Shown here one piece after another: positions 1-51,397 of a stretch of DNA of 51,397 nucleotides. Both the position numbers and the translations under genes were made by a program. The notes below the pieces were generated by a model. It ran no database searches. It had not been told where the DNA came from and saw nothing but the letters and a program-made list of their open reading frames with translations. Each line of letters begins with the position of its first letter. The first letter of the stretch is position 1. The DNA is from a virus, in the IMG/VR virus record IMGVR_UViG_3300048588_000723, positions 1-51,397 of that record; one strand, written 5' to 3'.

Positions 1-230
1 TGGAGTTATCCCCGATTATGGAGTTATCCCCGATTCTGGAGTTATCCCCGATTCTGGAGTTATCCCCGATTCTGGAGTTATACCCGATTCTGGAGTTATA
101 CCCGATTCTGGAGTTATCCCCGATTCTGGAGTTATACCCGATTCTGGAGTTATCCCCGATTCTGGAGTTATACCCGATTATGGAGTTATACCCGATTATG
201 GAGTTATACCCGATTATGGAGTTATCCCCG
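1..230. repeat. 18-bp tandem repeat array, left end
   Basis: Twelve complete units and a 14-nt partial unit of TGGAGTTATMCCCGATTM repeat with no spacers. Only two positions vary (10 and 18, C or A). On the minus strand the unit reads as the hexapeptide I-G-[D/Y]-N-S-[R/I], so the array is the coding repeat of the beta-helix gene that starts at 343. It continues at the right end of the window (51137-51397). Units in plus order, given as position 10/position 18: CA, CC, CC, CC, AC, AC, CC, AC, CC, AA, AA, AA, C-partial. There are no indels inside the array, so the reading frame is kept. Confidence 0.97.
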
Positions 231-343
231 CCTTTAAATTCAATTCCTCTAGCTTTAAATTCAGCATCAAGTTCAGAGATGTCTTCATATTCAAACTTTT
301 TAGTATCATAATTTTTGTCGTACAGATAAATTTTCTTTTTCAT
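1..343 (-). CDS. Hexapeptide-repeat left-handed beta-helix protein, N-terminal part (continues at 51397)
   Basis: ATG is at 343 on the minus strand. About 37 charged residues (beginning MKKKIYLYDKNYD, then an Asp/Glu/Lys-rich stretch ending EFKGG) precede tandem hexapeptides IGYNSI, IGYNSR and IGDNSR that run off the window at base 1. The pattern [ILV]-G-x-N-S-x is the classic left-handed beta-helix hexapeptide, in which three hexads make one coil. The same frame re-enters at 51397 and ends at 50879, so this is one gene cut by the contig ends. It belongs to the leftward early operon, downstream of the two small regulators at 463-961. Its function is unknown; related C-termini occur in proteins of many phage early regions (recalled, not searched). 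Copy number is uncertain because the array was probably collapsed or cut in assembly. Confidence 0.85.
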   Translation of the reverse strand, partial: MKKKIYLYDKNYDTKKFEYEDISELDAEFKARGIEFKGGDNSIIGYNSIIGYNSIIGYNSRIGDNSRIGYNSRIGDNSRIGYNSRIGYNSRIGDNSRIGDNSRIGDNSIIGDNS

Positions 344-462: not shown

Positions 463-732
463 TTATTTATTTTTATTTAATGGTTCCAATACAATTGTTT
501 TGTCATCTAATTTTGCAGCTACTTTATACAGGTCCGCTTTCTTATATTTATATCCATCAGCTCTACTATATCTCGGCAATAACCCTCGTTGAAATAACTG
601 AGAAAGGAATCTGTAGTTATTTACCCCTATGATTCTACACGCCTCTTTTGAATCGCAATAGTCAGATTGATTACTAAGTAATGCTATTCGAATAAGCCTC
701 AACTCTTCCAGTACAGCTTTATCGTTACTCAT
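463..732 (-). CDS. Small helix-turn-helix (excisionase/MerR-like) DNA-binding protein
   Basis: 89 residues. The N-terminal third is a coiled helix (EELRLIRIALLSNQ); a winged-helix-like segment follows (DSKEACRIIGVNNYRFLSQLFQRG at about 27-50), then a basic strand-turn (RYSRADGYKYKKADLYKVAA). The layout resembles Bacteroidota helix-turn-helix domain 17/excisionase proteins, in which a small MerR-type fold recognises a site near att or in the early promoter. It overlaps the upstream gene by 8 bp (ATG of this gene inside the end of 725-961), so the two are co-translated. As the second gene of the leftward early transcript it may act as an excisionase or an early transcription regulator. The family is inferred from the pattern only. 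Confidence 0.6.
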   Translation of the reverse strand: MSNDKAVLEELRLIRIALLSNQSDYCDSKEACRIIGVNNYRFLSQLFQRGLLPRYSRADGYKYKKADLYKVAAKLDDKTIVLEPLNKNK

Positions 733-961
733 GCTCTAATGCTTCTTGAATTAATTTTTCTTCCTGGCCATCACCTTCTTTATAGTATTTTGCAATAACA
801 TCAAATGTTTCTTTTTCACAACGACCAGTATTTAATGCTGTACCTATTGTTTTGGTGCTGACTTTTTTATTTATCTTTTTAGATAGATCGTGGATTTTTT
901 CAATATCTCCATGCTCTCTCTTCAGCTTCCAGCTTTTTAGGATTACTTTTGGTATTTTCAT
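725..961 (-). CDS. Cro-like small DNA-binding protein, first gene of early operon
   Basis: 78 residues, basic at the N-terminus (MKIPKVILKSWKLKREHGD), with a likely helix-turn-helix DLSKKINKKVSTKTIGTALN at about 25-44 and an acidic C-terminal tail. It is the first gene leftward from the divergent control region, facing the repressor at 1107 across 145 bp, which is where lambdoid-type phages keep Cro. The expected role is repression of the repressor promoter and commitment to lytic growth. The Cro assignment rests on size, helix-turn-helix and position; no family was confirmed. Confidence 0.6.
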   Translation of the reverse strand: MKIPKVILKSWKLKREHGDIEKIHDLSKKINKKVSTKTIGTALNTGRCEKETFDVIAKYYKEGDGQEEKLIQEALEHE

Positions 962-10337: not shown

Positions 10338-10342
10338 AATAG

Positions 10343-10418
10343 TGCGAGATGGAGCAGTTGGCAGCTCGTTAGACTCATACTCTAAAGGTCACCGGTTCGA
10401 GTCCGGTTCTCGCTACCA
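10343..10418 (+). tRNA. tRNA with CAT anticodon (Met or lysidine-type Ile)
   Basis: A full 76-nt cloverleaf: U8, D stem GAGC/GCTC with loop AGTTGGCA, anticodon stem TTAGA/TCTAA with loop CTCATAC (anticodon CAT), variable AGGTC, T stem ACCGG/CCGGT with TTCGAGT, encoded ACCA end. The acceptor stem is GCGAGA/TCTCGC with a T1-T72 mismatch at the top. It lacks the three G-C pairs of initiator tRNA in the anticodon stem, so it is an elongator Met or the Ile2 (CAU modified to lysidine) species. It lies in a 123-bp gap between two head genes in the same direction and would be processed from the late transcript. Confidence 0.93.
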
Positions 10419-10460
10419 AATAAATTAATGAATAATGCTGACGGGTAAGCCGTATGAATT

Positions 10461-11375: not shown

Positions 11376-11404
11376 GCAGTATAAACCCTTAATTATTTAA
11401 AACC

Positions 11405-12454: not shown

Positions 12455-12477
12455 TCCAATTAATTATTATTTGAACT

Positions 12478-12513
12478 AAAAAGAGCCGCTTCATATTTGG
12501 GGTGGCTCTTTTT
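12478..12513 (+). terminator. Intrinsic terminator/attenuator after the capsid gene
   Basis: AAAAAGAGCC...GGCTCTTTTT forms a stem of up to 10 bp around a 16-nt loop, 24 nt after the capsid stop and 16 nt before the next ATG. It would give more capsid than downstream connector transcript. Confidence 0.75.
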
Positions 12514-12528
12514 ATAAAGCGCCTAATC

Positions 12529-14168: not shown

Positions 14169-14515
14169 TAACAAGCGATTTTTTTATACTGTCATTTTTA
14201 ATAGCCATTCTCGCATTTGTTTATGTGTGCATACTTGCTATTCCAGGAGAAGTATTCGGCAAAATCAATAATTTTTTGTACTTGTATTTTAAGAACAATG
14301 AAAGAGAACAAGCTGGGATGTTTCCTCATCCTATATACAAATTGTTAATTGGTTGTGAAAAATGTATTGCCGGCCAAATAGCGCTATGGTCATTCCTTGT
14401 TAAAAATTGGACTGAATACACTTATAAGTTGATTTTTACACATGTCTTATTTGTTGGGCTTACAATTTTCATCACAGTAATTATTAAATCAATTTATAAA
14501 CGCTACATCGAATGA
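14165..14515 (+). CDS. Membrane protein with CxxC motif between neck and tail genes
   Basis: 116 residues with an N-terminal membrane helix (FFILSFLIAILAFVYVCILAI), a loop with GCEKCIAGQIALWSF (about 58-72) and C-terminal helix IFTHVLFVGLTIFITVIIKSI. The 'C.KC...Q..LW' signature resembles DUF1360-type membrane proteins that turn up in tail operons of Bacteroidota phages. It overlaps both neighbours by ATGA/ATGAG starts, so it is co-translated with tail genes. Its function is unknown; membrane location is predicted from hydrophobicity. Confidence 0.65.
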   Translation: MITSDFFILSFLIAILAFVYVCILAIPGEVFGKINNFLYLYFKNNEREQAGMFPHPIYKLLIGCEKCIAGQIALWSFLVKNWTEYTYKLIFTHVLFVGLTIFITVIIKSIYKRYIE

Positions 14516-15003
14516 GTGAAGTAAAAAGTATTGAAAAAAAACAACGTGAATTTATGGCTAATGGCCATAAGTACATTGTTATGGACAAGATTTCTATTGC
14601 TCGTTTTAAAGAGTATGAGAAGCTAGTGCCACGCTTAAGTTTTGGATTATCATTCAAAGAAATTTTTGATAAACTAAATAAATTGTACACCGCATTGAAT
14701 AAACAACAGTTTGCAAATGCAGCTGTATTGTGTCATAATATGATGAATGGAATCAATGCTGTTGATGATAATAAACGCGTTAACCCGGCATTAATGATGG
14801 CTGCTCTTGTTATTAATCGTGTAGATGAAGATCCAACGACATACAACGAGGAATTAATGTTTGATAAAATAGCAGACTGGCAAACGGAGGGCTATAATAT
14901 GATGGATTTTTTCGAATTGTCTCTGAATTCTATCCAGGGCTTCAGAGAAACATTGCTAAAATATACTCAGGCGCAGGCGGAAACAATGCTGGAGAAAAAA
15001 TAG
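14512..15003 (+). CDS. Tail assembly chaperone-like protein (gpG position)
   Basis: 163 residues, helical: KKQREFMANGHKYIVMDKIS, then IARFKEYEKLVPRLSFGLSFKEIFDKLNKLY and a C-terminal half with LMFDKIADWQTEGYNMMDFFELSL. It is two genes upstream of the tape measure, the slot of lambda gpG-like tail chaperones. The final codons GAG AAA AAA TAG carry six A residues, and the -1 frame is open straight into the next ORF, so a fusion product is possible. No motif independently proves the family. Confidence 0.6.
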   Translation: MSEVKSIEKKQREFMANGHKYIVMDKISIARFKEYEKLVPRLSFGLSFKEIFDKLNKLYTALNKQQFANAAVLCHNMMNGINAVDDNKRVNPALMMAALVINRVDEDPTTYNEELMFDKIADWQTEGYNMMDFFELSLNSIQGFRETLLKYTQAQAETMLEKK

Positions 15004-15023
15004 TCTTGCTGCAACAGCATGAC

Positions 15024-15227
15024 ATGGAAGTAGAAAAGAATTGGTCAGAACTATTTATGGTGATGACGGAAAGTGAATCTGGAAGAGTACAGGCAACAGA
15101 TGAGAAGGCACTCAGTGCAATGTGGGTAGAAGAGTTTTTTACAAAATTATTGGTGTTTAAAGAACGCCTAGACAAACGAGCCGCAGCGGCCGCAAAAGCA
15201 AATGGCAAAACTAACTCTAGATATTGA
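15024..15227 (+). CDS. Small tail chaperone, second part (gpT-like position)
   Basis: 67 residues from ATG 15024 (MEVEKNWSELFMVMTESESG), with acidic start and basic Ala-rich end (FKERLDKRAAAAAKANGKT). Its frame is -1 relative to the preceding gene and is open through the A6 run at 14995-15000, so it may also be made as the C-terminus of a frameshift product. The reading frame overlaps the tape measure start by 26 bp. Its order relative to the tape measure matches gpG-GT of lambdoid tails. Confidence 0.55.
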   Translation: MEVEKNWSELFMVMTESESGRVQATDEKALSAMWVEEFFTKLLVFKERLDKRAAAAAKANGKTNSRY

Positions 15228-18200
15228 ATCGAATGCGCTCAGTGTATTTGATAAAGCATTAGAAAGCATGTCAGAGCTTAGCTCTGGTGTTTCTGATTTT
15301 GAAAAACAGGGAAAAAAATCATTTGATAATGTTACAAAAGAAGCTGAAGGATTAAATAATGAGATTGTAAAAGGAGCAGAATCTACATCTGATTTTGTTG
15401 ATGAAACAATTAAGCTGAGTAAGTCCTCTAATGTAATAAAAGATTTAAAAAAACAAATTAAAGAGTACGAATCTCAGGCATTTAAAGCAGCATTAGCAGG
15501 AGATAAGGCATTAGGGGAAGAGTTTCAACGTAAAGCAGGTGCTGCTAAAAACCAGTTATCCAGTTTTAATACTGAGGTTAAAGCATTAACAGGAAATTTT
15601 GGACAAAACTTAGCAAAAGCAGCTAGTGAAGCCACTACTGTCATAGCTACAGGATTTGAGGGGATTTTATCAACTCAAATTTTATTAGGCGATAAATCTA
15701 AAGAGTTTGAAGAAACATTATTAAAGTTGCAAGCAATAAATGGTATTGCAAATGTTGCTAGAGAATTTGCAGGTATCTCAGACAAGCTTACTGAAATAAA
15801 GCTAGGTTTCGCACCAGTAACACAATTATTTACAAATGGAGCTTCGTCAATAGTTGATAGTTACAGTAACGTAAATGAATCATTAAAAGGATTCTTTTCC
15901 AATTTTACAGGAAATGCTAAAGCAGCCATTACAGGTGCAGCAGGTTATTTAAAAGATTTCGGTAAGCAATCTGTACAAGTTGCAAAAAATTTAGGAACAG
16001 GATTTGTTTCCTTCTTCTCTAATTTCGGCACCAACATGAAAGCGTTTGCAACATCTGCAAAGGCTGGAATTAATACAATAGGAACTGCTATACGAGCAAA
16101 TCCACTGGGAATTATACTAACCATTGTAGGTTTAATTATAGGGGCAATGGTTTTACTAAGAGATAAAGTAAAACCAATAATGGTCCTTTTCCAATTTTTG
16201 GGAGACATTATAGGTGCTATTGCTGACCACATAGAATCATTATTACAAGCAATTGGATTAACTGCATCGGAATCTGAAAAGGCTAATCAAAAAATAATTG
16301 ATAGTCATGCTGAGGTAAGAGAAGCAATTGAAAATAGATATGACAATGAAATCAAATTATTAAATGCTGCCGGGAAAGAAACTGCTGAAAAGGAAAAGGA
16401 AAAACTAAAAGCTGTTCGAGAATCAATAAAACAACAGCTTACAGCAATGGAAATTAAAAAAGCCAGAGGAGAAGAATTGTCTGATGAAGAAACAGAGGCG
16501 TATAAAAAAAGTATGATTGAACAAAAAAATATTTTGTTTGATTTGGCAGCAATCGATTTACGTGTTAAAAAAGAGCGTGCAGATGCAGCTAAAGCAGCTG
16601 CGAAAGAAGCTGAAGCAGCAGCTAAAGAGGCTGCACAAAAACAATTGCAATTACAAAAGGATTTACAACAAGGCTTAGCAGACCTTGCTAAACGTGCTCA
16701 ACAAGCAGAATTAGAAGGCTTGTATGGCAAAGAGCGATTAGACAGACAGAAAGAAATTAATGATAAGGATTTACAAGCATTGCGCGACTTACTTCAAAAG
16801 AAAGGCGAATTGCTTAATAAAAATTTTAAATTCTCAGCAGAGCAGGAGGAGCAATTTGCTATTCTTAAAACTCGAATCAATGAAGACTATTATGATGCTA
16901 TTTTAAAACTCGAAGTTGAAAACTCAAATAAAATAGCGGAGTCTAGAAAAAAAGAGATTGATTCTGAAGTAGAATTTTTAGAGTTAAAAGCCAAACTTGC
17001 TGAAGAAAGAATTAAAGGCACAACTGCACCAAAAGGTATCTCCAAAGATGCTGAAGTAACATTTGAATTACTTAAACAAAAGCAAATTCTTGAAATACGC
17101 AAACAAGCAGCTATTGATTTGTTGCAAATCAAACAAGATGCTATTGATGCTGAAACGAACAAATCTACAACCGCTTTAGAAAATGAATTAAAGCTATTGG
17201 AAGGAAGAAACGATGCCATATCAATAGCAAGAGCATCCGCAATCGAAAAAGAAATTGAGGCAATTGAAAAAAGTGCTGTAGTTCAAAAAGAAATATTGGT
17301 TGCTCAAACTCAATCTACTGTTTCAGAAATTAATAAGGAATTGGATAAAATAGGTGAAAACCTAAAACCTAAAAAAATTGATTTAGAGAAGTTGTTAGGT
17401 GGTGATGCTTCTGAGATTTCCTTTGCACTTAAAGCCAAAGTAAATATTGAGGTTTCCCAAGAAGATGTACAATCTGCTAAAGATGCACTTTCAACCCTTG
17501 CTGATAGTTTAAAATCTATCATGAATGATTATTTCGAAGCGGCACAAGCGCAACTTGACCAGGAGTTAGAAATGAATGCTCAAAGAATTGAGTCTCATGA
17601 AGAAATGATTAGTAGTTTAAAGGATCAGCTAGCAAATGAAAAAGAATTACGCGATCAGGGATTAGCAAATGATGTTGAACGTATTCAAGCTCAAATAAAA
17701 GAAGTAGAAGCTGCAAGGCAAAGAGATTTAGACAATGAAAGACGCTTGAAAAAAGAGAAGTTGAAGTTGGCAAAAGAACAATTAGTGATTGACACAATTA
17801 CTCAAGCATCACAAATGGTTTTAGCCATTGCTCAGTTATATGCATCCTTATCGTCTTTCACAATTGGACCTATTCCGGTAGGTGTTATTATTGCAACAGC
17901 CACAAGTGCTGCAATGGTAGGAGCTTTTATTGCAGGTAAAAAGAAAGCATTTGAAGCAGTTAATTCAGGAAATCAAGGATTGAGAAAAGGTGGTTATACA
18001 GGTGATGGTAATTGGGATGAACCTTCCGGCCACTTCACTCATAAGGGAGAGTTTGTTAATACGGCTGAAGACACTTTGAAATATAAGCCATTATTTGAAG
18101 GTATTCATAAGAAGGATAAATCTTTAATGGAGATTGGATTGCGTGATTTATTAAAAGATACAGGAGTAGTTTTAGATTCCGAAATACCAAAAGGTCTTTC

Positions 18201-18405
18201 AGATAAAAAAGAGTCAACACGTGCAGCTGAAATAAAAATGCAGTTTGCAAACGATAATTCGGGTGTTGAAAGCAGAATTGATAATGTGGAATCACACATA
18301 AAAAAATTAGTGAAACAAGGAGAGTTTTCTACAACAGTAAAACCGGATGGTACTGTAATTGAAAAAAGAGGAAGCATTACACGAGTAATCAAGCCAAGAA
18401 AATAG
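15202..18405 (+). CDS. Tape measure protein
   Basis: 1067 residues, the longest gene. It has an N-terminal coiled-coil region with Ser/Lys repeats, a hydrophobic segment (ANPLGIILTIVGLIIGAMVLL, about 300-320), very long charged coiled coil from about 370 to 890 (AAKAAAKEAEAAAKEAAQK and similar), a second hydrophobic segment (SSFTIGPIPVGVIIATATSAAMVGAFIAG, about 893-921) and a short tail. Tape measure length sets tail length; at about 1.5 angstrom per residue this suggests a tail near 160 nm (family rule of thumb). It overlaps the upstream chaperone and ends on TAGTG with the next gene. Confidence 0.93.
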   Translation: MAKLTLDIESNALSVFDKALESMSELSSGVSDFEKQGKKSFDNVTKEAEGLNNEIVKGAESTSDFVDETIKLSKSSNVIKDLKKQIKEYESQAFKAALAGDKALGEEFQRKAGAAKNQLSSFNTEVKALTGNFGQNLAKAASEATTVIATGFEGILSTQILLGDKSKEFEETLLKLQAINGIANVAREFAGISDKLTEIKLGFAPVTQLFTNGASSIVDSYSNVNESLKGFFSNFTGNAKAAITGAAGYLKDFGKQSVQVAKNLGTGFVSFFSNFGTNMKAFATSAKAGINTIGTAIRANPLGIILTIVGLIIGAMVLLRDKVKPIMVLFQFLGDIIGAIADHIESLLQAIGLTASESEKANQKIIDSHAEVREAIENRYDNEIKLLNAAGKETAEKEKEKLKAVRESIKQQLTAMEIKKARGEELSDEETEAYKKSMIEQKNILFDLAAIDLRVKKERADAAKAAAKEAEAAAKEAAQKQLQLQKDLQQGLADLAKRAQQAELEGLYGKERLDRQKEINDKDLQALRDLLQKKGELLNKNFKFSAEQEEQFAILKTRINEDYYDAILKLEVENSNKIAESRKKEIDSEVEFLELKAKLAEERIKGTTAPKGISKDAEVTFELLKQKQILEIRKQAAIDLLQIKQDAIDAETNKSTTALENELKLLEGRNDAISIARASAIEKEIEAIEKSAVVQKEILVAQTQSTVSEINKELDKIGENLKPKKIDLEKLLGGDASEISFALKAKVNIEVSQEDVQSAKDALSTLADSLKSIMNDYFEAAQAQLDQELEMNAQRIESHEEMISSLKDQLANEKELRDQGLANDVERIQAQIKEVEAARQRDLDNERRLKKEKLKLAKEQLVIDTITQASQMVLAIAQLYASLSSFTIGPIPVGVIIATATSAAMVGAFIAGKKKAFEAVNSGNQGLRKGGYTGDGNWDEPSGHFTHKGEFVNTAEDTLKYKPLFEGIHKKDKSLMEIGLRDLLKDTGVVLDSEIPKGLSDKKESTRAAEIKMQFANDNSGVESRIDNVESHIKKLVKQGEFSTTVKPDGTVIEKRGSITRVIKPRK

Positions 18406-21068
18406 TGAACGATAAAAAAAAATATCAAATTACTGTTGGCGCAACCACACGACAAGTATATCCAATAAACGACAAGGATGTGGTGTATACCTTTGCGCGT
18501 GAAGATGACCATATTTTCTATGGCAAAAAATTAAAAAACAAACTCGTATTTCACAACAACGCAAAAGCAACTATTGATGATTATTCTTTTTTCTACGGTT
18601 ATGAAAGCAACCCTGCCCTGCGTTGTGAAACTTTTTATTTAGAAATATTCAAATTATGTGAAGGAGAATATGTTACTGAATTCAAAGGCAAGTTCTCGTT
18701 AAATGATGGTGATTGGGATTTAGATAAATGTACGTTTGCTGTTAAGCCAGAGCCCAATGATATATACGCCTGCATCAAAGCAAATAAGAAAAACGAAGTG
18801 AACATCCTAGATGTTTTATCAGTTGTTACCACATCTGCTCAATTAGCATACAACTATGAATTTTATTACTGTATCGGAGCAGGTGCGCCTTATGCTGGAG
18901 CGTGTGCGCCTCCGGGTCCGAATGCATCAGAATGGGCGCTTCTTCATCGCTTTCAAAACTATACCTATTATGATGAAGATTGTGTGTTGCAAACAATCAA
19001 TGTAACTATTTATTATCGTGAGTTTGTTGTTACCACTTGTGTTGCAGGAGCTCCCAATTATCCATCAACAGGATCAGGTTGGGCGTTAGAAGATGATAAT
19101 TGTACTTTAAACGGAACAGCTAAATATGTTCGCACACCAACGATTACCTATTCACTTATCTCAAGCAATGAAAACCCCAATGTCGTGTCAAGCAACTGCG
19201 ATGACACTCCGCCACAAAAGACGTGTTTAGAAGTTACAAAAACGGCAACTCCAAACACTGTTACTATTGTAGGTTTTAGTGCTGTTGATATTGCAACACA
19301 AACTACAGGAAAGTATCTTGTTGAAGAAATACCTGGTGCAACTTATACTTGGAGCATTACCGGTTCAGGAAATACTATTGATGCAGGAAACGGTACAAAT
19401 GTGATTGATGTTACTTTTAATAACAGTGGTACTGTATCAGTTGCTATTCTAACTGTTTGTGGAAATACAATTAATGCTTCCCTTCCTTTCGTTGTAACCG
19501 TTGGTGGTACAAACAATGTTGTAAATGGAATAGAACTATCTGGCAGAACCCGTGTTTGTCCTGGAAGCAAAGCTCGTTTTAAATTCAATTACAATCCTGG
19601 AACATCCATGATTGCAACTGTATTGACAGGCACTCCTACTATTGTTGGAAATACAACTATAAGCTCAAGCCCGGATTATGAATTTGAGTTGGAGTTTGGA
19701 AATGATGAGGGAGCTATTCAATTGTCATTTGCACCAAGTGCATCGACATCTGTTGACAATGCTCCTGGAATAACTGTTGTTGTTTCTAGAGCAGCTGCTA
19801 CTCCTACCATAAAAGGATATACGGATGTATGTAATTCCGGGGAGTATTATTATGAGGTACCGGCAATGGATACTGTTACTAACTATGCATGGACAGTGTC
19901 CGGAGGAACAATTACGGCAACAGCAAACCCCAACAGAATTAAAGTAACATGGGATGGAAACAATGGGCCGGAAATAATTACATTAAAAGAAACGATTGGA
20001 TGCGCCTGCTCTCTGATTTTAATAACAGATTATTTGTCCGGTTTGCCTTCATGCCCTCGATTTTGGTTGTGCCCTAAAACAGATACCAATGTAATCTTTG
20101 ATAGAAACAGACCATTTCAGGATGTTTGCGAATATGTTGTAGATGCGCTAGGATGCGGTGTTGACAATGTAGTGTCTGATTTTTTTGATTGGAACGCTAT
20201 TGGAGATGCTCCCGGATATACAGCCGGCATCAACTATGTAACAACAGCTGCAAATAAATTAACTCGTATGACAATCGCTCAGAAGAGCGACATTATCAAT
20301 CCTACATCATCTGGAGCAGCTACAAAAGGCATGATTACTTTTGAAAAACTTGAAAAGATTTGGAGAGAGCTATTTAATGCATATTGGTTTATTGATGCAA
20401 ATGATAATTTACGAATCGAACACATCAGCTATTTTCAAAAAACGGTAGGTTACGATACAACTATTTCTCCGAATGCAATATACAATATTGCAAAAAGAAA
20501 ATACTCTTATGATAAATCAAAAATGCCAAAAGTGGAACGCTTCAAGTTTAGCGAGGCATTACAAACGGATATGGTAGGAGCTGACATTTGGTATGATTCT
20601 ATTTGTGTAGACCAAGACAGTGATAGTAATGTAAAAGAGAGAGGAACAGCAGATTTCCTTACGTGTGATTTGTATAACATTTTCCAAAATCCGGGCGACA
20701 TAAATAAGCAAGGATTTGTTTTGATGGCCAATACATTTGATGGTGTAAATTATCAGGTGGATAGTGAACAGGGTAAAATTTCAAACCTCATCATTCAAAA
20801 TGGACACTTGTCATGGGCTAACCTTCATCACAATTATCATAAATACAATCGAGTGTTGCTGCAAGGTTATATGAATTTGGTAGTTACCAATTTTATAACA
20901 GCCATTAAAGCAAAAAAACAATCTGAGATAGTTATTCAACTATGTTGTGATGAAGAATTTGAGCCAAGCAATTATTTAGTAAAAACAGATTTAGGTGATG
21001 GCATAGTAGATGAAGCAGATTATAGTACACGCTCCAATAGAGTGAGCGCAACCATTTTACACACATAA
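18405..21068 (+). CDS. Baseplate/distal tail protein with PKD-like domains
   Basis: 887 residues starting at GTG 18405 (TAGTG coupling to the tape measure). The N-terminal 120 residues are tail-protein-like (YQITVGATTRQVYPINDKD, FYLEIFKLCEGEYVTEFKGK). Then come Cys-rich strands and at least two PKD/Ig-like modules: about 280-365 (ATYTWSITGSGNTIDAG, VIDVTFNNSGTVSVA) and about 465-545 (NYAWTVSGGTITATANPN). The C-terminal 350 residues look like a baseplate hub (RIEHISYFQKTVGYDTTISP). PKD modules typically bind polysaccharide or pack between domains. It probably forms the tail tip in contact with the cell. Confidence 0.7.
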   Translation: MNDKKKYQITVGATTRQVYPINDKDVVYTFAREDDHIFYGKKLKNKLVFHNNAKATIDDYSFFYGYESNPALRCETFYLEIFKLCEGEYVTEFKGKFSLNDGDWDLDKCTFAVKPEPNDIYACIKANKKNEVNILDVLSVVTTSAQLAYNYEFYYCIGAGAPYAGACAPPGPNASEWALLHRFQNYTYYDEDCVLQTINVTIYYREFVVTTCVAGAPNYPSTGSGWALEDDNCTLNGTAKYVRTPTITYSLISSNENPNVVSSNCDDTPPQKTCLEVTKTATPNTVTIVGFSAVDIATQTTGKYLVEEIPGATYTWSITGSGNTIDAGNGTNVIDVTFNNSGTVSVAILTVCGNTINASLPFVVTVGGTNNVVNGIELSGRTRVCPGSKARFKFNYNPGTSMIATVLTGTPTIVGNTTISSSPDYEFELEFGNDEGAIQLSFAPSASTSVDNAPGITVVVSRAAATPTIKGYTDVCNSGEYYYEVPAMDTVTNYAWTVSGGTITATANPNRIKVTWDGNNGPEIITLKETIGCACSLILITDYLSGLPSCPRFWLCPKTDTNVIFDRNRPFQDVCEYVVDALGCGVDNVVSDFFDWNAIGDAPGYTAGINYVTTAANKLTRMTIAQKSDIINPTSSGAATKGMITFEKLEKIWRELFNAYWFIDANDNLRIEHISYFQKTVGYDTTISPNAIYNIAKRKYSYDKSKMPKVERFKFSEALQTDMVGADIWYDSICVDQDSDSNVKERGTADFLTCDLYNIFQNPGDINKQGFVLMANTFDGVNYQVDSEQGKISNLIIQNGHLSWANLHHNYHKYNRVLLQGYMNLVVTNFITAIKAKKQSEIVIQLCCDEEFEPSNYLVKTDLGDGIVDEADYSTRSNRVSATILHT

Positions 21069-31573: not shown

Positions 31574-32935
31574 TTATTTAAAGTTTTCAATTGTTAAATC
31601 TCCATTCAAATGCGAGAAATGGAGAGGAATGTTGTTTTTCTCGCAATGCCTTATGTAACGCTTAATATCTGATTGCACATAGCCCGGCATAATTTCAGTA
31701 CCAAAACAAATTCTTCCTGCAATCTCAGAAGCAATAATTGTGGTACCACTTCCCATAAACCAATCAATCACTAAATCATTTTCATTGGTTGTATCCATAA
31801 TAGCATCTACTACCATTTGAACTGGTTTTGGTGTAGGATGATTTAACAATTCTTTTCTGTCCGGGTTATTAAAAGCTGTTGAAGTAGGATAGTCCCAAAC
31901 ATTATAACGAATGCGGTCCATTAACTCCAAATGTGATAGATGCTTTGCTGTACCGTTTTTATAAATAAAAACCAACTCGTGCTTGGCCCGGTAAAAAGAA
32001 CCATTCGCTCCATTGCTTTTATTCCACACCACAAGCTGCTTTGGAATCATAGAGCCATAAACCCTGTTTGATGCCTCGCACATGTGCCACATGTGACGGA
32101 AATCCATACAGATGTAATGTATTGAACCATCAACTGAATTTTCGCACGATACCTCCATAATTGATTTTAGAAACAACATAAACTCCTCCTCTGTCATTTC
32201 TCCTCCACCCATAGCAAAATCTTCGTGTCGCTTCTCTCCTTTGTTCGAAAAGCGGTCTGCTTTTAAATTGTAAGGAGGGTCAGTAAATATAATCCTTGCC
32301 TGTTCACCATTCATTAATTGCTTAACAATATCTTTATCCAAGCAGCTGCCACAAATTAAACGGTGCTTACCTAATTGAAACAAATCTCCAGGCTTTACAA
32401 TAATATTCTCATCCACTCCCGGAAGCTCTTCATCTTCTTCAGTAACTTCAATTCCCATAGGATTAAATTTCTGTTCGAATCTCGGAATGCTTAACTCAGG
32501 TAAATCCATTTCCATTTTCAATTCATCAAATACCAATTCATTTAACTTTACGAAATCGAATAACCCTTCCTGAGTGATTTTAGCATACATGGAGGAATAA
32601 ATCAATACCAATCTGGCTGCCTCCTTTTTATTATCACAATGAATAAATGTTGCCGGAAGTTGGTATGGAACTTCCACTCCTTCTTTTACCAATTCTTCTA
32701 ATATTACTCTTCGGTGATAACCATCCAGACACCATCTAGCGCCTTCAAAATCTTCATACACATAAAATGGTTGTGTGAAATTATTGGCAACAATAGAAGC
32801 TTTCAACTTATGTTTTGCTTCTGGAGATAGTTCTTTAAAATTATTTGCCTGAATAGAACCTAGTTCTCTCCAGTTAATTAATTCAGTTTTGAGTACTCGA
32901 GATTTGATGTTGTTGTTTTCGTTTAGTGTTTCCAT
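31574..32935 (-). CDS. ParB-like domain fused to DNA adenine/cytosine-N4 methyltransferase
   Basis: 453 residues. A ParB/Srx-like N-terminal domain (residues about 20-130, LDGYHRRVILEEL at 70-82) is fused to an amino-methyltransferase with TDPPYN (218-223, motif IV) before FMGSGTT (393-399, motif I). That DPPY-first order marks the beta class. It methylates adenine-N6 or cytosine-N4, probably to hide phage DNA from restriction. The start ATGGAAACACT resembles a start context repeated in this genome. Part of the leftward early operon. Confidence 0.88.
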   Translation of the reverse strand: METLNENNNIKSRVLKTELINWRELGSIQANNFKELSPEAKHKLKASIVANNFTQPFYVYEDFEGARWCLDGYHRRVILEELVKEGVEVPYQLPATFIHCDNKKEAARLVLIYSSMYAKITQEGLFDFVKLNELVFDELKMEMDLPELSIPRFEQKFNPMGIEVTEEDEELPGVDENIIVKPGDLFQLGKHRLICGSCLDKDIVKQLMNGEQARIIFTDPPYNLKADRFSNKGEKRHEDFAMGGGEMTEEEFMLFLKSIMEVSCENSVDGSIHYICMDFRHMWHMCEASNRVYGSMIPKQLVVWNKSNGANGSFYRAKHELVFIYKNGTAKHLSHLELMDRIRYNVWDYPTSTAFNNPDRKELLNHPTPKPVQMVVDAIMDTTNENDLVIDWFMGSGTTIIASEIAGRICFGTEIMPGYVQSDIKRYIRHCEKNNIPLHFSHLNGDLTIENFK

Positions 32936-34251: not shown

Positions 34252-35583
34252 TTACTTTTTTTTAAATGAATTAAGTGGATGTTTTCTACTCATGTATGCA
34301 ATGATTTCATTGTGCTTTGCCATTGCATCTCTTAGCATGGACACAGAATGTTTTCTGTAATAGAAAAGGAATTCGTCAGTCAAGCAAGTGAAGTTAAATC
34401 CACATTTTGCAGCACGTATCCAAAACTCCCAATCTTCATATCCTAGCTTCATGTTCTCATCATAACCTCCGGCCATTGTCCACACGTCTTTCTTAAACAG
34501 CGAGCAGCAGTTCAATGGATTCTTATGAAGGAAATTTTCTAAGGTTGGATTTGTAAATGGCTTCACCCAGCGTTTGGATTGGTCACCAAATGTTACCAAT
34601 CCGGTTGCAACAATATCATTCTTGCCAATGGTACGTTCAATAAATTGCGGGTGTATTTTATCATCTGCATCAAGTGGTAGTATCCAACCTCCGGCCGCTT
34701 TTTTTATTCCGGCATTACGTGCTGAAGACAAGCCACCATTTTCTTTTTCAATCAGTTTTACTTTGCCATTGTTTGATATCGCTTTTCTATTTCTTGCTAA
34801 AGGAATACCATCCATGTATTGCTTAACAACCTCAGATGTATTATCTGGGGAGCCGTCATTAACAACTATGATTTCAATATCTTGATACGTTTGATTTAAT
34901 ACAGATTCAATTGCATCTGGTAGAAAGTGAGCTTGTTTGTAACAAGGAATTACTACAGTTACTTTGTTATTCCAACTGTTCCCCCAGTGATGAACTGATA
35001 GCGTGTTTTCTGTCACACATTCAGGAGTGTAAAATTCATCGTAGTGATAAGGGTAGAAATATTCCGGACGAAGTATCGCTACATCTTTATAAATTTTATC
35101 GAACTCGCCTACCTTCCATCCACGCTTCTTCATGATGTTGGTAAACATAATAGGCCCGGTTGCAAGTTCAATTTTTTCTGAATCAAACGGAAAAGCATCC
35201 ATGTAATCCAAACATTCCTTTAAATAAGGATGTCCTTTTTCTGCAACAATCACAGCATTGTTTATCCATGTTTTACTTTCTGCGCCCAATACAAGTTTGT
35301 TGTGCAACAAACAATCAAATGATTTCACAGCTTCCACATCAATATCAAAATAGATACCTCCATTTTCGTACAATTCCTGCACTCGAGCATAGTGGCCAGC
35401 TAGTGCATAGTTTTTGATTGCAATAGCTTTATCTACAAAGGTGCCATGTTTGACATTCTCCATTGAGATAATGTGTACTTCATAATCGGGCATCACTCGT
35501 TTCCATGACTCGATATACTTTTCAAATTTTTGTGGTACCGGCTTATCGCTGATCCATGTGCTGTAGATTTTTTTTGGTATCAT
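34252..35583 (-). CDS. Two-domain glycosyltransferase (GT32-like + GT2-like)
   Basis: 443 residues. Domain 1 (1-205): MIPKKIYSTWISDKPVPQKF, then GGIYFDIDVE with the DxD at 80-82, as in GT32/OCH1-like enzymes. Domain 2 (208-443): VTVVIPCYKQAHFLPDAIES, VVNDGSPDN, and DADD at 305-308 with YEDWEFWIRA, typical GT2 with intact metal and catalytic acid sites. Two active sites in one polypeptide suggest sequential addition of sugars. Placed with a Stealth-like enzyme and methyltransferase. The fusion is a single open frame with no sign of decay. Confidence 0.8.
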   Translation of the reverse strand: MIPKKIYSTWISDKPVPQKFEKYIESWKRVMPDYEVHIISMENVKHGTFVDKAIAIKNYALAGHYARVQELYENGGIYFDIDVEAVKSFDCLLHNKLVLGAESKTWINNAVIVAEKGHPYLKECLDYMDAFPFDSEKIELATGPIMFTNIMKKRGWKVGEFDKIYKDVAILRPEYFYPYHYDEFYTPECVTENTLSVHHWGNSWNNKVTVVIPCYKQAHFLPDAIESVLNQTYQDIEIIVVNDGSPDNTSEVVKQYMDGIPLARNRKAISNNGKVKLIEKENGGLSSARNAGIKKAAGGWILPLDADDKIHPQFIERTIGKNDIVATGLVTFGDQSKRWVKPFTNPTLENFLHKNPLNCCSLFKKDVWTMAGGYDENMKLGYEDWEFWIRAAKCGFNFTCLTDEFLFYYRKHSVSMLRDAMAKHNEIIAYMSRKHPLNSFKKK

Positions 35584-38089: not shown

Positions 38090-39589
38090 TTATAAGTGAA
38101 CAAATTTGTCGTCATCTAAAAAATTGTCGTTTGATTCCATACTGTTTTTTCTTGGTTCTGTATAATCAATTGGAGTCACAGAATTATATGAAGGAGTGTC
38201 ATTCGATGGCAAAAACTTTGTCAGGTGACTAATGAATCGAAGTTTTTCTGTTCCAATAGGCCCATTCCTATGTTTTGCAAATATTATTTCAGCTACACCT
38301 CTAGCATCTTCTCCATTGTCATATTCAAATACATTGTAATATTCCGGACGATGTATAAAAGCAACGATATCGGCATCCTGTTCAATGGCTCCAGATTCAC
38401 GTAAATCTGAAAGCTGAGGTCGTTTATCTCCTCCCCTAGTTTCAACTGCACGACTTAACTGTGATAATGCAATTATAGGTATTTCTAATTCTTTGGCAAG
38501 TGATTTTAATCCTCTACTTATTGAGGATATCACTTGCTCACGATTTTCTTTTATACTATTATTTTTAACACCTTCCATCAATTGCAAGTAATCAACAATG
38601 ATATAACCAATACCCTTTTCTCTTTTCAGTTTCCGAGCTTTACTCCTTAATTCAGTGATAGAAATGCTTGGAGTGTCATCTAAGTATAAAGGTGAGTTGA
38701 TTAATTTGATACAATTATTTTGTATGTATGTTAATTGCTCGTTTGCAATTCCTCTTCTTGTAAAATCTGAAATAGAGGTATCGCTTTCTAATGCAAAAAT
38801 TCGTGTTGCAATTTGTCGGGAAGACATCTCTAATGAAAATATAACCCCTGGTATTTTAAAGTCAACAGATGCATTCCGAGCGAAATTACAAACCAGTGAT
38901 GTTTTACCCATTGCCGGACGAGCAGCTATAATAATTAAATCGGGTGATTGCCAACCTGCAGTTATCCTGTCAATGTTTGGATATCCCGAAGGAACACCTG
39001 AAATTCCTTTTTTTGTTAAAAGCACTTCATTGTGTGCCATCACTTCATTCCACATAGTTGCAATTGACTGAACCTTGCCAATTGCAACATCTTTTGTTAT
39101 AGCCGTTAATCCCTTTTCTAACGACTCTAAAACATCAAAGCAATCTGCATGGTCAGAATAGGCTTCCTGCATCACTTCTGTGCTTAATCGAATCAATTCC
39201 CTCTGAATAAATTTTTGTTGAATAATACGAGCATGGTACTCAGCTTGATTTGATTCTCGATTTGTGAGCTGAGTAATATACCAAGGACCTCCAACCAAAT
39301 CTAGCTTTTCAGTTCTTTTTAATTCCTGAGTTACACTAAGTATGTCAGGCGTGATACTTTTTTTATATAAATTTATTATTGCACTATAAATTAACTCATG
39401 TGTTTCTTTGTAGAACGATTCTGGCTTAAGTATATCTGCAATAACGTGAACAGATTCGAGGTTCAGCATTAATGACCCAAGCACAGCCTCTTCCAAATCA
39501 ATTGCTTGAGGAGGAAGCTTAACATCTAAAGAAGGTCGAGCTAATTGAGAGGATTTATTCTTTTTATTATATTTATTTACTTCATTCAT
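38090..39589 (-). CDS. dnaB: Replicative DNA helicase, DnaB-like
   Basis: 499 residues. An N-terminal DnaB domain (PPQAIDLEEAVLGSLMLNLE at 26-45) precedes a RecA-like core: Walker A RPAMGKTSL at 224-232, followed by DYLQLMEG and SQLSRAVE motifs and RESGAIEQDADIV. It is full length for a hexameric helicase. It is encoded after the DUF1376-like gene (start overlaps its end), which may act as helicase loader or initiator. Length and motifs are canonical, so the call is firm. Confidence 0.96.
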   Translation of the reverse strand: MNEVNKYNKKNKSSQLARPSLDVKLPPQAIDLEEAVLGSLMLNLESVHVIADILKPESFYKETHELIYSAIINLYKKSITPDILSVTQELKRTEKLDLVGGPWYITQLTNRESNQAEYHARIIQQKFIQRELIRLSTEVMQEAYSDHADCFDVLESLEKGLTAITKDVAIGKVQSIATMWNEVMAHNEVLLTKKGISGVPSGYPNIDRITAGWQSPDLIIIAARPAMGKTSLVCNFARNASVDFKIPGVIFSLEMSSRQIATRIFALESDTSISDFTRRGIANEQLTYIQNNCIKLINSPLYLDDTPSISITELRSKARKLKREKGIGYIIVDYLQLMEGVKNNSIKENREQVISSISRGLKSLAKELEIPIIALSQLSRAVETRGGDKRPQLSDLRESGAIEQDADIVAFIHRPEYYNVFEYDNGEDARGVAEIIFAKHRNGPIGTEKLRFISHLTKFLPSNDTPSYNSVTPIDYTEPRKNSMESNDNFLDDDKFVHL

Positions 39590-44394: not shown

Positions 44395-45561
44395 TTATTT
44401 TTTAGTGAATGTTACGTTAGTTAATTGCTTTCCATTGTTCCAAATGGACATTAGACCTTTTTCTGTGGTTTGTATTTTCATTGTTTCAATCTTTCCGAAG
44501 AAGTTTATGTTACCTCCCATATCAACCACCCATCCAATTTTTTTAGTTCCATCAGGATAAGTAAATGGCCTCATAACACGTCCTACAATTTGATAATACA
44601 ATGCCAGTGACATAGTTGATCGAGCTATCAATACAGCTTCTAATTCAGGATAATCAAAACCGGTTGTGAGTACTCCCACATTTATGACACATCTTATTTT
44701 GCCTGACTTGAATTGCATTAAAATTCGTTCTCTAACTTTTGCATCCGTTTCTCCAGTTAATACAACTGATCCTGGTATTCCTTTTGAAACTTCGTTTGCT
44801 TCCGATATCAGTGTGCAGAAAACAAGTATGTTATTTCGCTTTTGCAGAATTCTATTTGCATAACCAATGGTGCGCTGAGGCATATTGATTTGTCGGTAAT
44901 AGCTTTTCAAACTTGCATCTGTAAAATCAGTTCCATTAGAATTTGTTTGAAGCATACTTCTGTCCACTACGTTGAAGTTATAATACTCTAGTTGGGCTAA
45001 GTGTCCAGCATTGAAAAGAACATCGTTCTGAATGTGATATATGCACTTATTAAAGATTCTGGGATTCGTTCTGTTGATGAATTTTAATTGCGCTCCATCA
45101 AATCCTGTTGTTAAGCGATAAGGTGTTGCTGTCAATCCTAAGACTTTTGCATCCGGAAGAGAGTGAATAAAATCGTGATACATTCCTCCATTTGCATTTA
45201 CTAAATGGCATTCATCAATAATAATGTTTTTTACATCTCGGAATAAGTGATGTTTTTTTGCAACACTACCAATCGTTGCGAATGTAATTTTATCAATGAA
45301 TTTACTTCCGGCAGATGCTGAATACACTCCTGCACGATATCCGTAAGACATAAACTTTTTTAAGTTCTGTTCCAATATTTCTTTGGATGGTTGGAAAACA
45401 ATTGTTTTAGAATCCAAACTCATTGCCGTGTTTGCAATCACAACACTTTTTCCTGATCCTGTTGGAAGAATCTCAAAAGCATTGTGATTGCCCTTACCTT
45501 TAAAGTAAGCTACATTGGCATCAATTGCCTCAACTTGATATGTGCGTGGAGTGAAAATCAT
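44395..45561 (-). CDS. Superfamily II DEAD/DEAH-type helicase
   Basis: 388 residues. PTGSGKS (33-39, motif I), DECH (116-119, motif II), LGLTATPYR (motif III, about 139-147) and QIVGRVMRPF (motif VI region, about 334-343) are all present. Length is that of short phage UvsW/RadD-like helicases without accessory domains. It may act in recombination-dependent replication or branch migration with the RecT system. It is downstream of the nuclease pair in the same transcript. Confidence 0.9.
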   Translation of the reverse strand: MIFTPRTYQVEAIDANVAYFKGKGNHNAFEILPTGSGKSVVIANTAMSLDSKTIVFQPSKEILEQNLKKFMSYGYRAGVYSASAGSKFIDKITFATIGSVAKKHHLFRDVKNIIIDECHLVNANGGMYHDFIHSLPDAKVLGLTATPYRLTTGFDGAQLKFINRTNPRIFNKCIYHIQNDVLFNAGHLAQLEYYNFNVVDRSMLQTNSNGTDFTDASLKSYYRQINMPQRTIGYANRILQKRNNILVFCTLISEANEVSKGIPGSVVLTGETDAKVRERILMQFKSGKIRCVINVGVLTTGFDYPELEAVLIARSTMSLALYYQIVGRVMRPFTYPDGTKKIGWVVDMGGNINFFGKIETMKIQTTEKGLMSIWNNGKQLTNVTFTKK

Positions 45562-49066: not shown

Positions 49067-49921
49067 CTATAAATCGTTTGTTGTTGCAAATTCAGTATTC
49101 GGCTTTATTGCTTCATTGGTAGTTGATTCAACTACTTCAGCATAATTTGCTTCTTCGCTTCCGGCAGCATTATCTTTTTCAGCATCTACTATTACTTCAA
49201 TAGGGTGTGCAATAATGCTTTTAAATTTTCCTTCATTAGGATTAGTTCCAAGTTTTTTCAATCCGTGACGCACTGCTTTTGCTCTTGCAAACTCCGGGTC
49301 AATACCGCCTTTCCAATTGGTATAATTTTCATTGGCATACTTCAACGACTCGGTTGCAGCAGCTGTGCCAAAATCATCTTTGTAACGTCCATTTTCTTTG
49401 TGTGAAGCTCTTCTCCAACGATAAAAATCTGATTCATCAAATTCTCTTTTTTCCCATCTAGGTTCAGGAGTAGAAGGAAGAAGTATTTCAACTGATACAG
49501 CAATAACTTTTCCTGTTGCATCTTTTGTGACAACCGGATTTTTCATATCCAATATTCTACCACATTGGCGATTAATAGAAATAATTCCGTTGGCAGATGG
49601 CATTATCTCTAATGCTTTTTTGGTCACCATTTGTCCATTGTTATCTTTTACTTTAACATTTCGAGTTTTCACATAAACCAAACCTGCGTTTGGATCAAGT
49701 GATAAATTTTGCTTTAACACTGTTTTAACGGCCATAACAATTGTGGCCGGAAGGCAATCTAATATTTCAGGTTTTGAAATGCAATGCATTCGTATGTGTT
49801 CTAACTCCTGGAGTGCTAATGTTTTTACATCTACACCATCAGCTGCGTTAAGTCTTAATACAGCTTCTAATTGTGGGAGTTCCGCTTTTAGCAATTCTAT
49901 TGGTTTTAATTCTGTTGACAT
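49067..49921 (-). CDS. recT: RecT-family ssDNA annealing protein
   Basis: 284 residues. The N-terminal KPIELLKAELPQLEAVLRLN and LDCLPATIVMAVKTVLKQNL, then NGIISINRQCGRI and REFDESDFYRWRRASHKE carry the RecT layout of helix-rich annealase, with the conserved C-terminal Lys/Arg block (TESLKYANENYTNWKGGID, FARAKAVRHGLKKLGTNP). Single-strand annealing protein acting with the RecE-like nuclease at 46537. The C-terminal tail is acidic (Glu/Asn rich) as in other RecT relatives. Confidence 0.88.
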   Translation of the reverse strand: MSTELKPIELLKAELPQLEAVLRLNAADGVDVKTLALQELEHIRMHCISKPEILDCLPATIVMAVKTVLKQNLSLDPNAGLVYVKTRNVKVKDNNGQMVTKKALEIMPSANGIISINRQCGRILDMKNPVVTKDATGKVIAVSVEILLPSTPEPRWEKREFDESDFYRWRRASHKENGRYKDDFGTAAATESLKYANENYTNWKGGIDPEFARAKAVRHGLKKLGTNPNEGKFKSIIAHPIEVIVDAEKDNAAGSEEANYAEVVESTTNEAIKPNTEFATTNDL

Positions 49922-50598: not shown

Positions 50599-50886
50599 TT
50601 ATATTGCCTCAATTTGTATTTTCTTTCGGTATTGCTGTTTAGTCCTTACCGTGATAACTATTTCACGATTTGATGGCAGGTGATAATCGAAATGATAATA
50701 ATCTAGCGATGGCACTTCGAAGGGGTTATATAAATGGCACTTTACATAAGTGGCCGCCTCCATTAATTGGGTTATGCTATCAACGCAGATGGTTGCATGA
50801 GCTTTACTTGTGTGTTTTAAATTTTTCAATTCCGCTTCTAAAGCAAAAAGGCTTTGAACTACTGGGTTGCTTGATGAGTTATTCAT
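50599..50886 (-). CDS. Hypothetical early protein
   Basis: 95 residues from ATG 50886 (MNNSSSNPVVQSLFALEAEL), whose ATGAATAA overlaps the end of the beta-helix gene, so the two are coupled. An ORF in the same frame opens 45 codons earlier, but those codons are the overlapping gene's sequence. The rest is alpha/beta: FALEAELKNLKHTSKAHATI, ITQLMEAATYVKCHLYN, a basic strand end KQQYRKKIQIEAI. Not recognised. Confidence 0.55.
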   Translation of the reverse strand: MNNSSSNPVVQSLFALEAELKNLKHTSKAHATICVDSITQLMEAATYVKCHLYNPFEVPSLDYYHFDYHLPSNREIVITVRTKQQYRKKIQIEAI

Positions 50887-51397
50887 TTGTTGCAGGTTTG
50901 TTTTTATTTTCGATTGGCAATAATATTTTTGAATCGTGGATTTTGGATATGGTGTCAATGTATACTTTGTACTCTTGTTTTTCTTCGGAAGTGTAACCTT
51001 CGTCTTCTCCAACTTCTTCATACAACTGCTTCCATTCTTTAATATTCATGCTTTTGCATCCAATTTGAATCGCATCGTAACCCCAATAAGAAACAAAATG
51101 CTTTGATCCTGAAAAACAAATGGCTTTTATAATAAGGTTATACCCGATTCTGGAGTTATCCCCGATTATGGAGTTATCCCCGATTCTGGAGTTATCCCCG
51201 ATTCTGGAGTTATCCCCGATTCTGGAGTTATACCCGATTCTGGAGTTATCCCCGATTCTGGAGTTATCCCCGATTCTGGAGTTATCCCCGATTATGGAGT
51301 TATCCCCGATTCTGGAGTTATCCCCGATTCTGGAGTTATCCCCGATTCTGGAGTTATACCCGATTCTGGAGTTATACCCGATTCTGGAGTTATACCC
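50879..51397 (-). CDS. Hexapeptide-repeat beta-helix protein, C-terminal part (continues from base 1)
   Basis: The frame entering from the right end reads IGYNSR/IGDNSR repeats to about 51137, then NLIIKAICFSGSKHFVSYWG, YDAIQIGCKSMNIKEWKQLY, and a helical EGYTSEEKQEYKVYIDTISK before TAA at 50879. The C-terminal cap 'S-KH-V-YWG...IQIGC...I.EW...YEEVGE.EGYT..E..EY' is the type found in small phage proteins of unknown role with beta-helix cores. The stop overlaps the next ATG (ATGAATAA). Codon use in the repeat is fixed while the cap is unique, showing expansion by slippage or recombination in the middle of the gene. Confidence 0.85.
   Translation of the reverse strand, partial: GYNSRIGYNSRIGYNSRIGDNSRIGDNSRIGDNSIIGDNSRIGDNSRIGDNSRIGYNSRIGDNSRIGDNSRIGDNSIIGDNSRIGYNLIIKAICFSGSKHFVSYWGYDAIQIGCKSMNIKEWKQLYEEVGEDEGYTSEEKQEYKVYIDTISKIHDSKILLPIENKNKPATNE
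51137..51397. repeat. 18-bp tandem repeat array, right end
   Basis: A 14-nt partial unit, 13 complete units and a final 13-nt partial unit of the same repeat as at 1-230. Order of variable positions: AC (partial), CA, CC, CC, CC, AC, CC, CC, CA, CC, CC, CC, AC, AC, A-partial. A seven-unit (126-bp) block starting with CA, CC, CC, CC, AC occurs twice (from 51151 and 51277), and 51277-51397 matches 1-121 apart from one base. It encodes the hexapeptides next to the C-terminal cap of the beta-helix protein. Confidence 0.97.

What the first reader, a model, noticed from the sequence alone, without database searches (positions are those of the whole stretch)
50879..51397. Left-handed beta-helix gene built from an 18-bp minisatellite, split across the window ends
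Read on the minus strand, the array at both ends gives uninterrupted IG[DY]NS[RI] hexapeptides with unique N- and C-terminal caps at 343 and 50879. The repeat unit of DNA (18 bp) equals exactly one hexapeptide and three units make one coil, so the gene can change helix length in whole-coil steps by slippage. This explains the array better than CRISPR, iterons or a plus-strand ELSPIL protein. It is the first sizeable gene of the early operon; what a length-variable early beta-helix does is not described that I know of.
Basis: partly seen in the sequence, partly recalled or inferred. Interest (0 to 1): 0.82.

Follow-up and report, generated by a model that had tools for sequence, protein, structure and literature searches.

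The report
Phage repeat-rod gene of variable length
A temperate phage carries an early gene encoding a rod-shaped protein made of nearly identical six-residue blocks, one per 18-bp DNA repeat; in related phages the number of blocks and their outward-facing residues differ between close relatives while the core stays fixed, which suggests a quickly adjustable binding rod of unknown target.

Summary
The minus-strand arrays at both window ends are two halves of one gene. The N-half and C-half match opposite ends of the same phage family (phrog_5353, function unknown), and several relatives carry both caps around one uninterrupted array. The solenoid is very probably a left-handed beta-helix by sequence; AlphaFold gave a solenoid but did not settle its handedness.

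The "whole-coil steps" claim fails: unit counts fall in all three classes modulo 3, with no lag-3 pattern.

New here: (1) within arrays nearly all variation is non-synonymous and outward-facing (37 of 70 possible changes, against 5 of 41 synonymous and 1 of 64 inward); (2) the C-cap also closes a pentapeptide solenoid encoded by a 15-bp minisatellite; (3) in Flavobacterium phages the gene is an exchangeable cassette, probably the "N-acyltransferase" ORF that a paper linked to broader host range.

I read it as a non-enzymatic binding rod in an arms race; the function is inferred. A length-variable hexapeptide prophage gene was reported before (Liberibacter).

The parts
230..343 (-). ATG and unique N-terminal cap (about 37 residues, conserved L...F-x-Y...L...E...R-x-I), ending at the first, degenerate unit GGDNSI
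1..229 (-). N-terminal part of the hexapeptide array (13 units of 18 bp, last one cut by the contig end)
   Evidence: Pfam Hexapep E=9e-17
51136..51397 (-). C-terminal part of the hexapeptide array (one cut unit, 13 perfect units, last unit IGYNLI)
   Evidence: Pfam Hexapep E=4e-23
50879..51135 (-). C-terminal cap domain (about 80 residues: hairpins and two helices in the model; invariant H, YWG, I-Q-[IV]-G-C, W, EY, YI, H); stop TAA at 50879-50881
   Evidence: phrog_32789 and phrog_5353; no Pfam family
50599..50886 (-). next ORF of the operon; an in-frame ATG at 50886-50884 overlaps the end of the solenoid gene (ATGAATAAC over TAA), suggesting translational coupling; function unknown
   Evidence: sequence, ORF list; no family
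463..732 (-). small ORF upstream of the solenoid gene in the same leftward operon (89 aa, no family match)
725..961 (-). first small ORF of the leftward operon (78 aa, no family match)
49067..49921 (-). RecT-like annealing protein downstream in the operon (weak: below the Pfam cut-off); marks an early recombination/replication module
   Evidence: Pfam RecT 19.4 bits against cut-off 24; helicase at 44395-45561 and DnaB at 38090-39589

Best explanation
The gene is a member of phrog_5353: N-cap + array of hexapeptides + conserved C-cap. It is an accessory gene of the early (recombination/replication) region of temperate phages and phage-plasmids. The protein is a capped, probably left-handed, beta-helix rod with no sign of an active site. 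The DNA array gains and loses 18-bp units by slippage or unequal recombination. Each event changes the rod by any whole number of thirds of a coil, which the caps tolerate because all units present the same core. Inward positions (1, 2, 5) are fixed by folding. The outward positions (3, 4, 6) carry two to several alternative residues (D/Y/N/S/H; N/R/E/G; R/T/I/K/E/S), kept mixed in every lineage although synonymous sites are homogenised, so the surface appears to be under diversifying or balancing selection. Most likely role: a non-enzymatic binding scaffold made early in infection that engages a fast-changing host (or rival-phage) target, for example as a counter-defence protein. Shown in relatives: family, anatomy, length variation in near-identical phages, outward-biased variation, cassette-like gain and loss. 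Inferred: slippage as the agent, selection as the cause of the bias, protein binding, counter-defence.
For: Family and anatomy. LbH class by sequence: Hexapep E=4e-23; 52 PDB sequences hit, nearly all hexapeptide (LbH) proteins such as LpxA/LpxD/GlmU/eIF2B-epsilon/gamma-carbonic anhydrase; 84 columns at 1.5 A to a predicted viral eIF-2B gamma protein, a class known to carry an LbH. Length variation: L031 (11 units incl. the last) versus L032 (at least 19) with 99.94% identity over 5.4 kb; L023 (15 units) versus L014 (5) with about 93% identical flanks; Leptospira plasmids/prophages 12, 19, 20 units, nearby DNA mostly about 90-98% identical. Outward diversification: over 10 arrays, changes seen/possible 37/70 outward non-synonymous, 1/64 inward, 5/41 synonymous; Fisher p=1.6e-5 outward versus synonymous. 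Accessory status: present in 51 Flavobacterium phage records, absent from about 28 with matching flanking DNA; in FCV-1 a different ORF fills the slot. PMC5524643 reports an extra ORF (67.1, 'N-acyltransferases' domain) in the broadest-host-range group of these phages, which I take to be this gene. Early/recombination context: RecT-like, DnaB; AAA_24 in L012 and L024, RecT in L031, DnaB in L022, PD-(D/E)XK next to the gene in Leptospira.
Against: No experiment on any member. Units within an array are not independent, so the variation test overstates its p-value. Copy numbers in metagenomic contigs can be wrong through repeat collapse. AlphaFold's solenoid has no close PDB match (best E about 0.01-0.02), so handedness and register are unproven. 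The Flavobacterium homologue has degenerate, non-tandem repeats (no array there), so variability is not essential to the family. ORF 67.1 = ASD52775 is my inference from order and domain, and the host-range link is a correlation shared with other gene changes. PADLOC gives no defence-related match, which neither supports nor excludes counter-defence.
Confidence: 0.6

Rival explanations
1. It is an acyl/acetyl-transferase of the LpxA/NeuD type that modifies a surface sugar or lipid, as its Leptospira relatives are annotated, comparable to the prophage polysialate O-acetyltransferase NeuO.
For: Hexapeptide class and database names (acyl-ACP--UDP-N-acetylglucosamine O-acyltransferase; DapH/DapD/GlmU-related); partial hits to LpxD/NeuD/LpxA models; NeuO is a prophage-encoded hexapeptide O-acetyltransferase subject to phase variation (PMC3046976, abstract).
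Against: All NCBIfam enzyme models are far below cut-off (63.6 against 242.5 bits); the window's array consists only of I, G, D, Y, N, S, R (plus L in the last unit) with no histidine and no loops; active-site geometry would not easily survive changes of 1/3 coil; the gene sits in an early recombination operon.
Confidence: 0.08
2. It is a DNA mimic, like pentapeptide proteins MfpA/Qnr, that occupies DNA-binding host proteins (gyrase, restriction enzymes, nucleases).
For: The same C-cap also closes a pentapeptide solenoid (L033); both solenoids make straight rods; early expression next to recombination genes; a pentapeptide gene lies beside the hexapeptide gene in a Leptospira plasmid.
Against: Arrays are close to neutral, -0.5 to +0.2 charges per unit, and several are net zero or positive; the D/Y and R/T mixture does not mimic a phosphate ladder.
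Confidence: 0.12
3. It is a virion structural protein (fibre or tail decoration) whose length variation alters host range.
For: Beta-helices are common in phage fibres; variable outward residues fit a receptor-binding role; the gene correlates with host range in Flavobacterium phages (PMC5524643, inferred identity).
Against: The gene is in the minus-strand early operon with RecT-like and helicase genes, away from the plus-strand portal/terminase/tail block; relatives keep the early context.
Confidence: 0.07
4. The array is a DNA element (iteron, recombination hot spot or assembly artefact) and the reading frame is incidental.
For: Both contig ends fall in the array; several relatives also break there (L009, L010, L018, L025, L032, L034).
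Against: The protein frame is kept across lineages while the DNA changes synonymously; caps are conserved on both sides; Flavobacterium homologues encode the protein without a DNA repeat.
Confidence: 0.03

Closest known systems
PHROG family phrog_5353 (256 columns, unknown function)
   Same: N-cap, hexapeptide array and C-cap all match; window halves E=2e-18 and 2e-37, full relative L012 E=2e-59, Flavobacterium homologue E=9e-75
   Different: The Flavobacterium member has degenerate single-copy repeats; the window and its near relatives have near-identical tandem units
'Ca. Liberibacter asiaticus' prophage-region gene CLIBASIA_05650 (PMC3296602)
   Same: 18-bp tandem repeats each encoding one hexapeptide, LpxA-like fold predicted, natural alleles of 18 and 22 hexapeptides
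   Different: Imperfect V-led repeats; presence of the N- and C-caps was not tested here; not placed in phrog_5353
LbH acyltransferases (LpxA, LpxD, GlmU, NeuD, NeuO)
   Same: [ILV]-G-x-x-[STA]-x hexapeptide signature and probable triangular helix
   Different: No enzyme model passes its cut-off; perfect repeats without loops or catalytic histidine in the array; variable helix length; different caps
Pentapeptide-repeat proteins (Qnr/MfpA class)
   Same: Solenoid rod made of short repeats; one phage pentapeptide protein (L033) carries the same C-cap and is encoded by a 15-bp minisatellite of 38 copies
   Different: Different repeat and helix type; arrays here are near-neutral in charge
Variable-length tandem repeat regions of Campylobacter phages CP220/CPt10 (PMC2853527)
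   Same: PCR showed mixed repeat lengths within one plaque-purified phage population, attributed to slipped-strand mispairing
   Different: Mostly non-coding ~75-bp repeats

Membership tests
phrog_5353 | N-terminal part of the profile (positions about 5-111) | tested here: met
   left half of the gene, E=2.1e-18
phrog_5353 | C-terminal part of the profile (positions about 75-251) | tested here: met
   right half, E=1.6e-37
phrog_5353 | both parts in one continuous protein | tested here: met
   met in relatives L011, L012, L023, L027, L028, L031; in the window itself the array is cut by the contig ends
left-handed beta-helix (hexapeptide) proteins | tandem [LIV]-G-x-x-[STAV]-x hexapeptides above the Pfam Hexapep cut-off | tested here: met
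   60.4 and 80.5 bits against cut-off 27; PDB sequence hits nearly all LbH proteins
left-handed beta-helix (hexapeptide) proteins | left-handed triangular coil of 18 residues in three dimensions | tested here: inconclusive
   AlphaFold gives one short strand per hexapeptide (pLDDT 87.5) but no PDB match at E<=0.001; 1.5 A over 84 columns to a viral eIF-2B gamma model
LbH acyltransferases | full-length enzyme model above curated cut-off | tested here: not met
   best 63.6 bits against 242.5 for LpxD
LbH acyltransferases | catalytic histidine in the helix | tested here: not met
   no histidine in the window's array
LbH acyltransferases | acyl-donor (CoA or acyl-ACP) binding site | not testable with these tools
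   needs a structure or a binding assay
DNA-mimic pentapeptide proteins | strongly acidic rod surface | tested here: not met
   array net charge -0.5 to +0.2 per unit in 15 relatives
DNA-mimic pentapeptide proteins | pentapeptide A(D/N)LXX repeats | tested here: not met
   hexapeptide repeats; only the C-cap is shared, with L033
length-variable tandem-repeat genes | different copy number in otherwise near-identical genomes | tested here: met
   met for relatives L031/L032 and L023/L014 and Leptospira elements; not testable for the window phage itself

The most novel reading that the evidence does not exclude
A phage-borne class of 'adjustable rods': a common C-cap domain closes interchangeable solenoids (hexapeptide, pentapeptide, GG-x-F type), at least two of them encoded by a minisatellite whose unit equals one structural repeat. 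Slippage gives rapid change of rod length and reshuffling of outward residues, and selection keeps a mixed outward surface, so that the phage can retarget an early-acting host-interaction (counter-defence) protein without changing its core.
Probability: 0.3. Interest if true: 0.78.

Novelty: new variant of a known kind. Interest (0 to 1): 0.52.

Why it matters
If right, this is a simple way to evolve a protein surface quickly: core residues fixed, outward residues variable, length set by repeat number, all in an early phage gene. Repetitive solenoid genes near phage recombination modules, now annotated as LpxA-like enzymes or hypothetical proteins, would become candidates for fast-evolving host-interaction factors. 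The Flavobacterium and Leptospira members make this testable in cultured systems. It also warns that such arrays break short-read assemblies, so the genes are often truncated or missed.

Tried and rejected
Whole-coil (54-bp) stepping: rejected by unit counts 16,28,17,17,16,20,40,22,11,6,10,12,19,28,26 (mod 3: two 0, eight 1, five 2) and by absence of lag-3 enrichment (pooled z -2.4; the strongest lags are 7-8 units in some arrays). Per-face residue ladders: not supported by the same test, although L028 shows a local E-R-V triplet. DNA mimic by charge: not supported. Exact terminal overlap to close the circle: none found. Pentapeptide neighbour in the Leptospira plasmid sharing the C-cap: looks alike by eye, not confirmed (hhalign probability 9%). 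Search of species-representative genomes with two cap alignments: candidates but no confirmed relative. Near-identical phages in the phage collection: none for window 1-20000. AlphaFold plus PDB fold search for the C-cap: no informative fold. PADLOC and NCBIfam: no usable family. Literature searches for an earlier description of this phage family: only the Liberibacter, NeuO, Campylobacter-phage and Flavobacterium papers were useful. The genome record equals the window, so no further sequence bridges the junction.

Full report
What is there. The window is a 51,397-bp IMG/VR virus record classed as linear, with integrase, portal, terminase and tape-measure genes, so a temperate tailed phage. 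An 18-bp array lies at both ends. On the minus strand the left end starts at ATG 343 with a 37-residue cap and 13 hexapeptides; the right end gives one cut unit, 13 perfect units, IGYNLI and a cap of about 80 residues ending at 50879. Both use the same register and frame. No exact end overlap exists (best long one 121 bp with one mismatch, in phase) and a literal join would be out of frame, so the array's true length is unknown: about 21 units if the ends overlap, 28 or more if not.

One gene, known family. The left half matches phrog_5353 at positions 5-111 and the right half at 75-251 of 256. Relatives in IMG/VR carry both caps around one array: L011, L012, L017, L022, L023, L027, L028, L031. 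This settles, as far as sequence can, that the two ends belong to one gene. The family has no known function. Leptospira plasmid copies are labelled LpxA-like and Flavobacterium phage copies hypothetical.

Fold. Hexapep scores 60 and 80 bits (cut-off 27), and a sequence search of the PDB returns 52 sequences, nearly all hexapeptide proteins, mostly LbH enzymes. AlphaFold gives a solenoid with one short strand per hexapeptide and a C-cap of hairpins and two helices (pLDDT 87.5, 76.4). Foldseek finds no PDB match at E<=0.001. Against viral models it matches a 178-residue protein (E 9e-7), pentapeptide proteins, and an eIF-2B gamma model at 1.5 A over 84 columns. I therefore treat left-handedness as probable, not shown.

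Length variation. L031 and L032 are 99.94% identical over 5,378 bp including the C-cap, yet L031 has 11 units (counting the last one before the cap) and L032 at least 19. L023 and L014, with about 93% identical flanks, have 15 and 5. Leptospira elements have 12, 19 and 20 with nearby DNA mostly 90-98% identical. Short-read collapse could affect the metagenomic cases, but two of the Leptospira cases are complete plasmid records. Counts in 15 proteins fall in all classes mod 3, and units three apart are not more alike than shuffled ones (pooled z -2.4). So changes come in hexapeptide units or blocks, not whole coils; because all units share one core, the C-cap can apparently dock in any of three rotations (inference).

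Surface variation. Each lineage has its own synonymous dress (ATCGGGGATAACTCCAGA in the window, ATCGGTGATAATTCAAGG in L011, ATTGGCGACAATAGCAGA in L012), homogenised within the array; yet D/Y at position 3 and R/T/I/K at position 6 are mixed in each. Over ten arrays, counting variants seen in at least two units, 37 of about 70 possible outward non-synonymous changes occur, 1 of 64 inward and 5 of 41 synonymous. Homogenisation acts on all sites of a unit alike, so the contrast suggests that selection keeps a mixed outward surface. Units are not independent and the p-value (1.6e-5) should be read loosely.

A portable C-cap. The C-cap has no Pfam family. It recurs on a pentapeptide protein (L033, hhalign 98.7%) whose gene is a 15-bp minisatellite of 38 copies, and on a GG-x-F repeat protein of a Vibrio/Shewanella phage (L016, 99.0%). 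Different solenoids, at least two of them minisatellite-encoded at one structural repeat per unit, thus share one cap.

Context and accessory nature. In the window the gene is the third ORF of a leftward operon with RecT-like, helicase and DnaB genes further on; the next ORF's in-frame ATG overlaps its stop. Relatives lie near RecT, AAA_24, DnaB or PD-(D/E)XK genes. In Flavobacterium phages the homologue is in 51 records and missing from about 28 with matching flanks; in FCV-1 an unrelated ORF fills the slot, and part of the neighbouring gene region is duplicated beyond the insert in V165. A published time series reports that the later, broadest-host-range phages gained ORFs, one (67.1) with an 'N-acyltransferases' domain (PMC5524643). 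The gene's order and domain suggest it is this one; that is my inference, and other changes coincide.

Mechanism. I favour a non-enzymatic binding rod in an arms race with the host. Against an enzyme: no enzyme model near cut-off, no histidine or loops in the array, and tolerance of one-third-coil changes. Against a DNA mimic: near-neutral arrays. Against a virion part: early operon. The target is unknown and no experiment exists.

Prior knowledge. A prophage-region gene of 'Ca. Liberibacter asiaticus' with 18-bp repeats has alleles of 18 and 22 hexapeptides (PMC3296602), and Campylobacter phages show mixed repeat lengths within one plaque stock (PMC2853527). So a length-variable hexapeptide phage gene is not new in kind. 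New here are the link to phrog_5353, the outward-biased variation, the refutation of whole-coil stepping, the shared cap across solenoid types and the cassette swap. I rate it a new variant of a known kind.

Noticed in passing
L037 (Leptospira mayottensis plasmid p2) 3301-6231: Five tandem paralogues of the hexapeptide gene; the first three end in the array (ENGANV[SP]L*) and lack the C-cap, the last two have it.
   Followed up: partly
L033 4405-4976: 38 copies of a 15-bp repeat encoding a pentapeptide solenoid that carries the same C-cap.
   Followed up: partly
L009 1102-2268: Near a truncated family member, a 388-aa protein built of another short repeat (N-T-G-x-x-S type) with its own C-terminal domain; a second probable solenoid in the same region.
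   Followed up: no
L035 6366-6944: A pentapeptide-repeat gene follows the hexapeptide gene in a Leptospira interrogans plasmid; its C-terminal end resembles the cap by eye but is not confirmed.
   Followed up: partly
L026 4371-5225: The Leptospira copy in this prophage has an in-frame stop in the array, so it is a pseudogene or a sequencing error.
   Followed up: no
L009, L010, L018, L025, L032, L034: Many contigs of relatives start or end inside the array, so members of this family are likely truncated or missed in short-read viromes.
   Followed up: partly
window 34252-35583 (-): Glycosyltransferase gene with two domains, family 2 and a DXD sugar-binding region, in a phage genome.
   Followed up: no
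window 31574-32935 (-): DNA methyltransferase that also matches ParB-like partition profiles at its N-terminal part.
   Followed up: no
L040 1417-2655: In Flavobacterium phage V165 the hexapeptide cassette is followed by a ~420-bp second copy of the neighbouring ORF region, a possible trace of how the cassette was inserted.
   Followed up: partly
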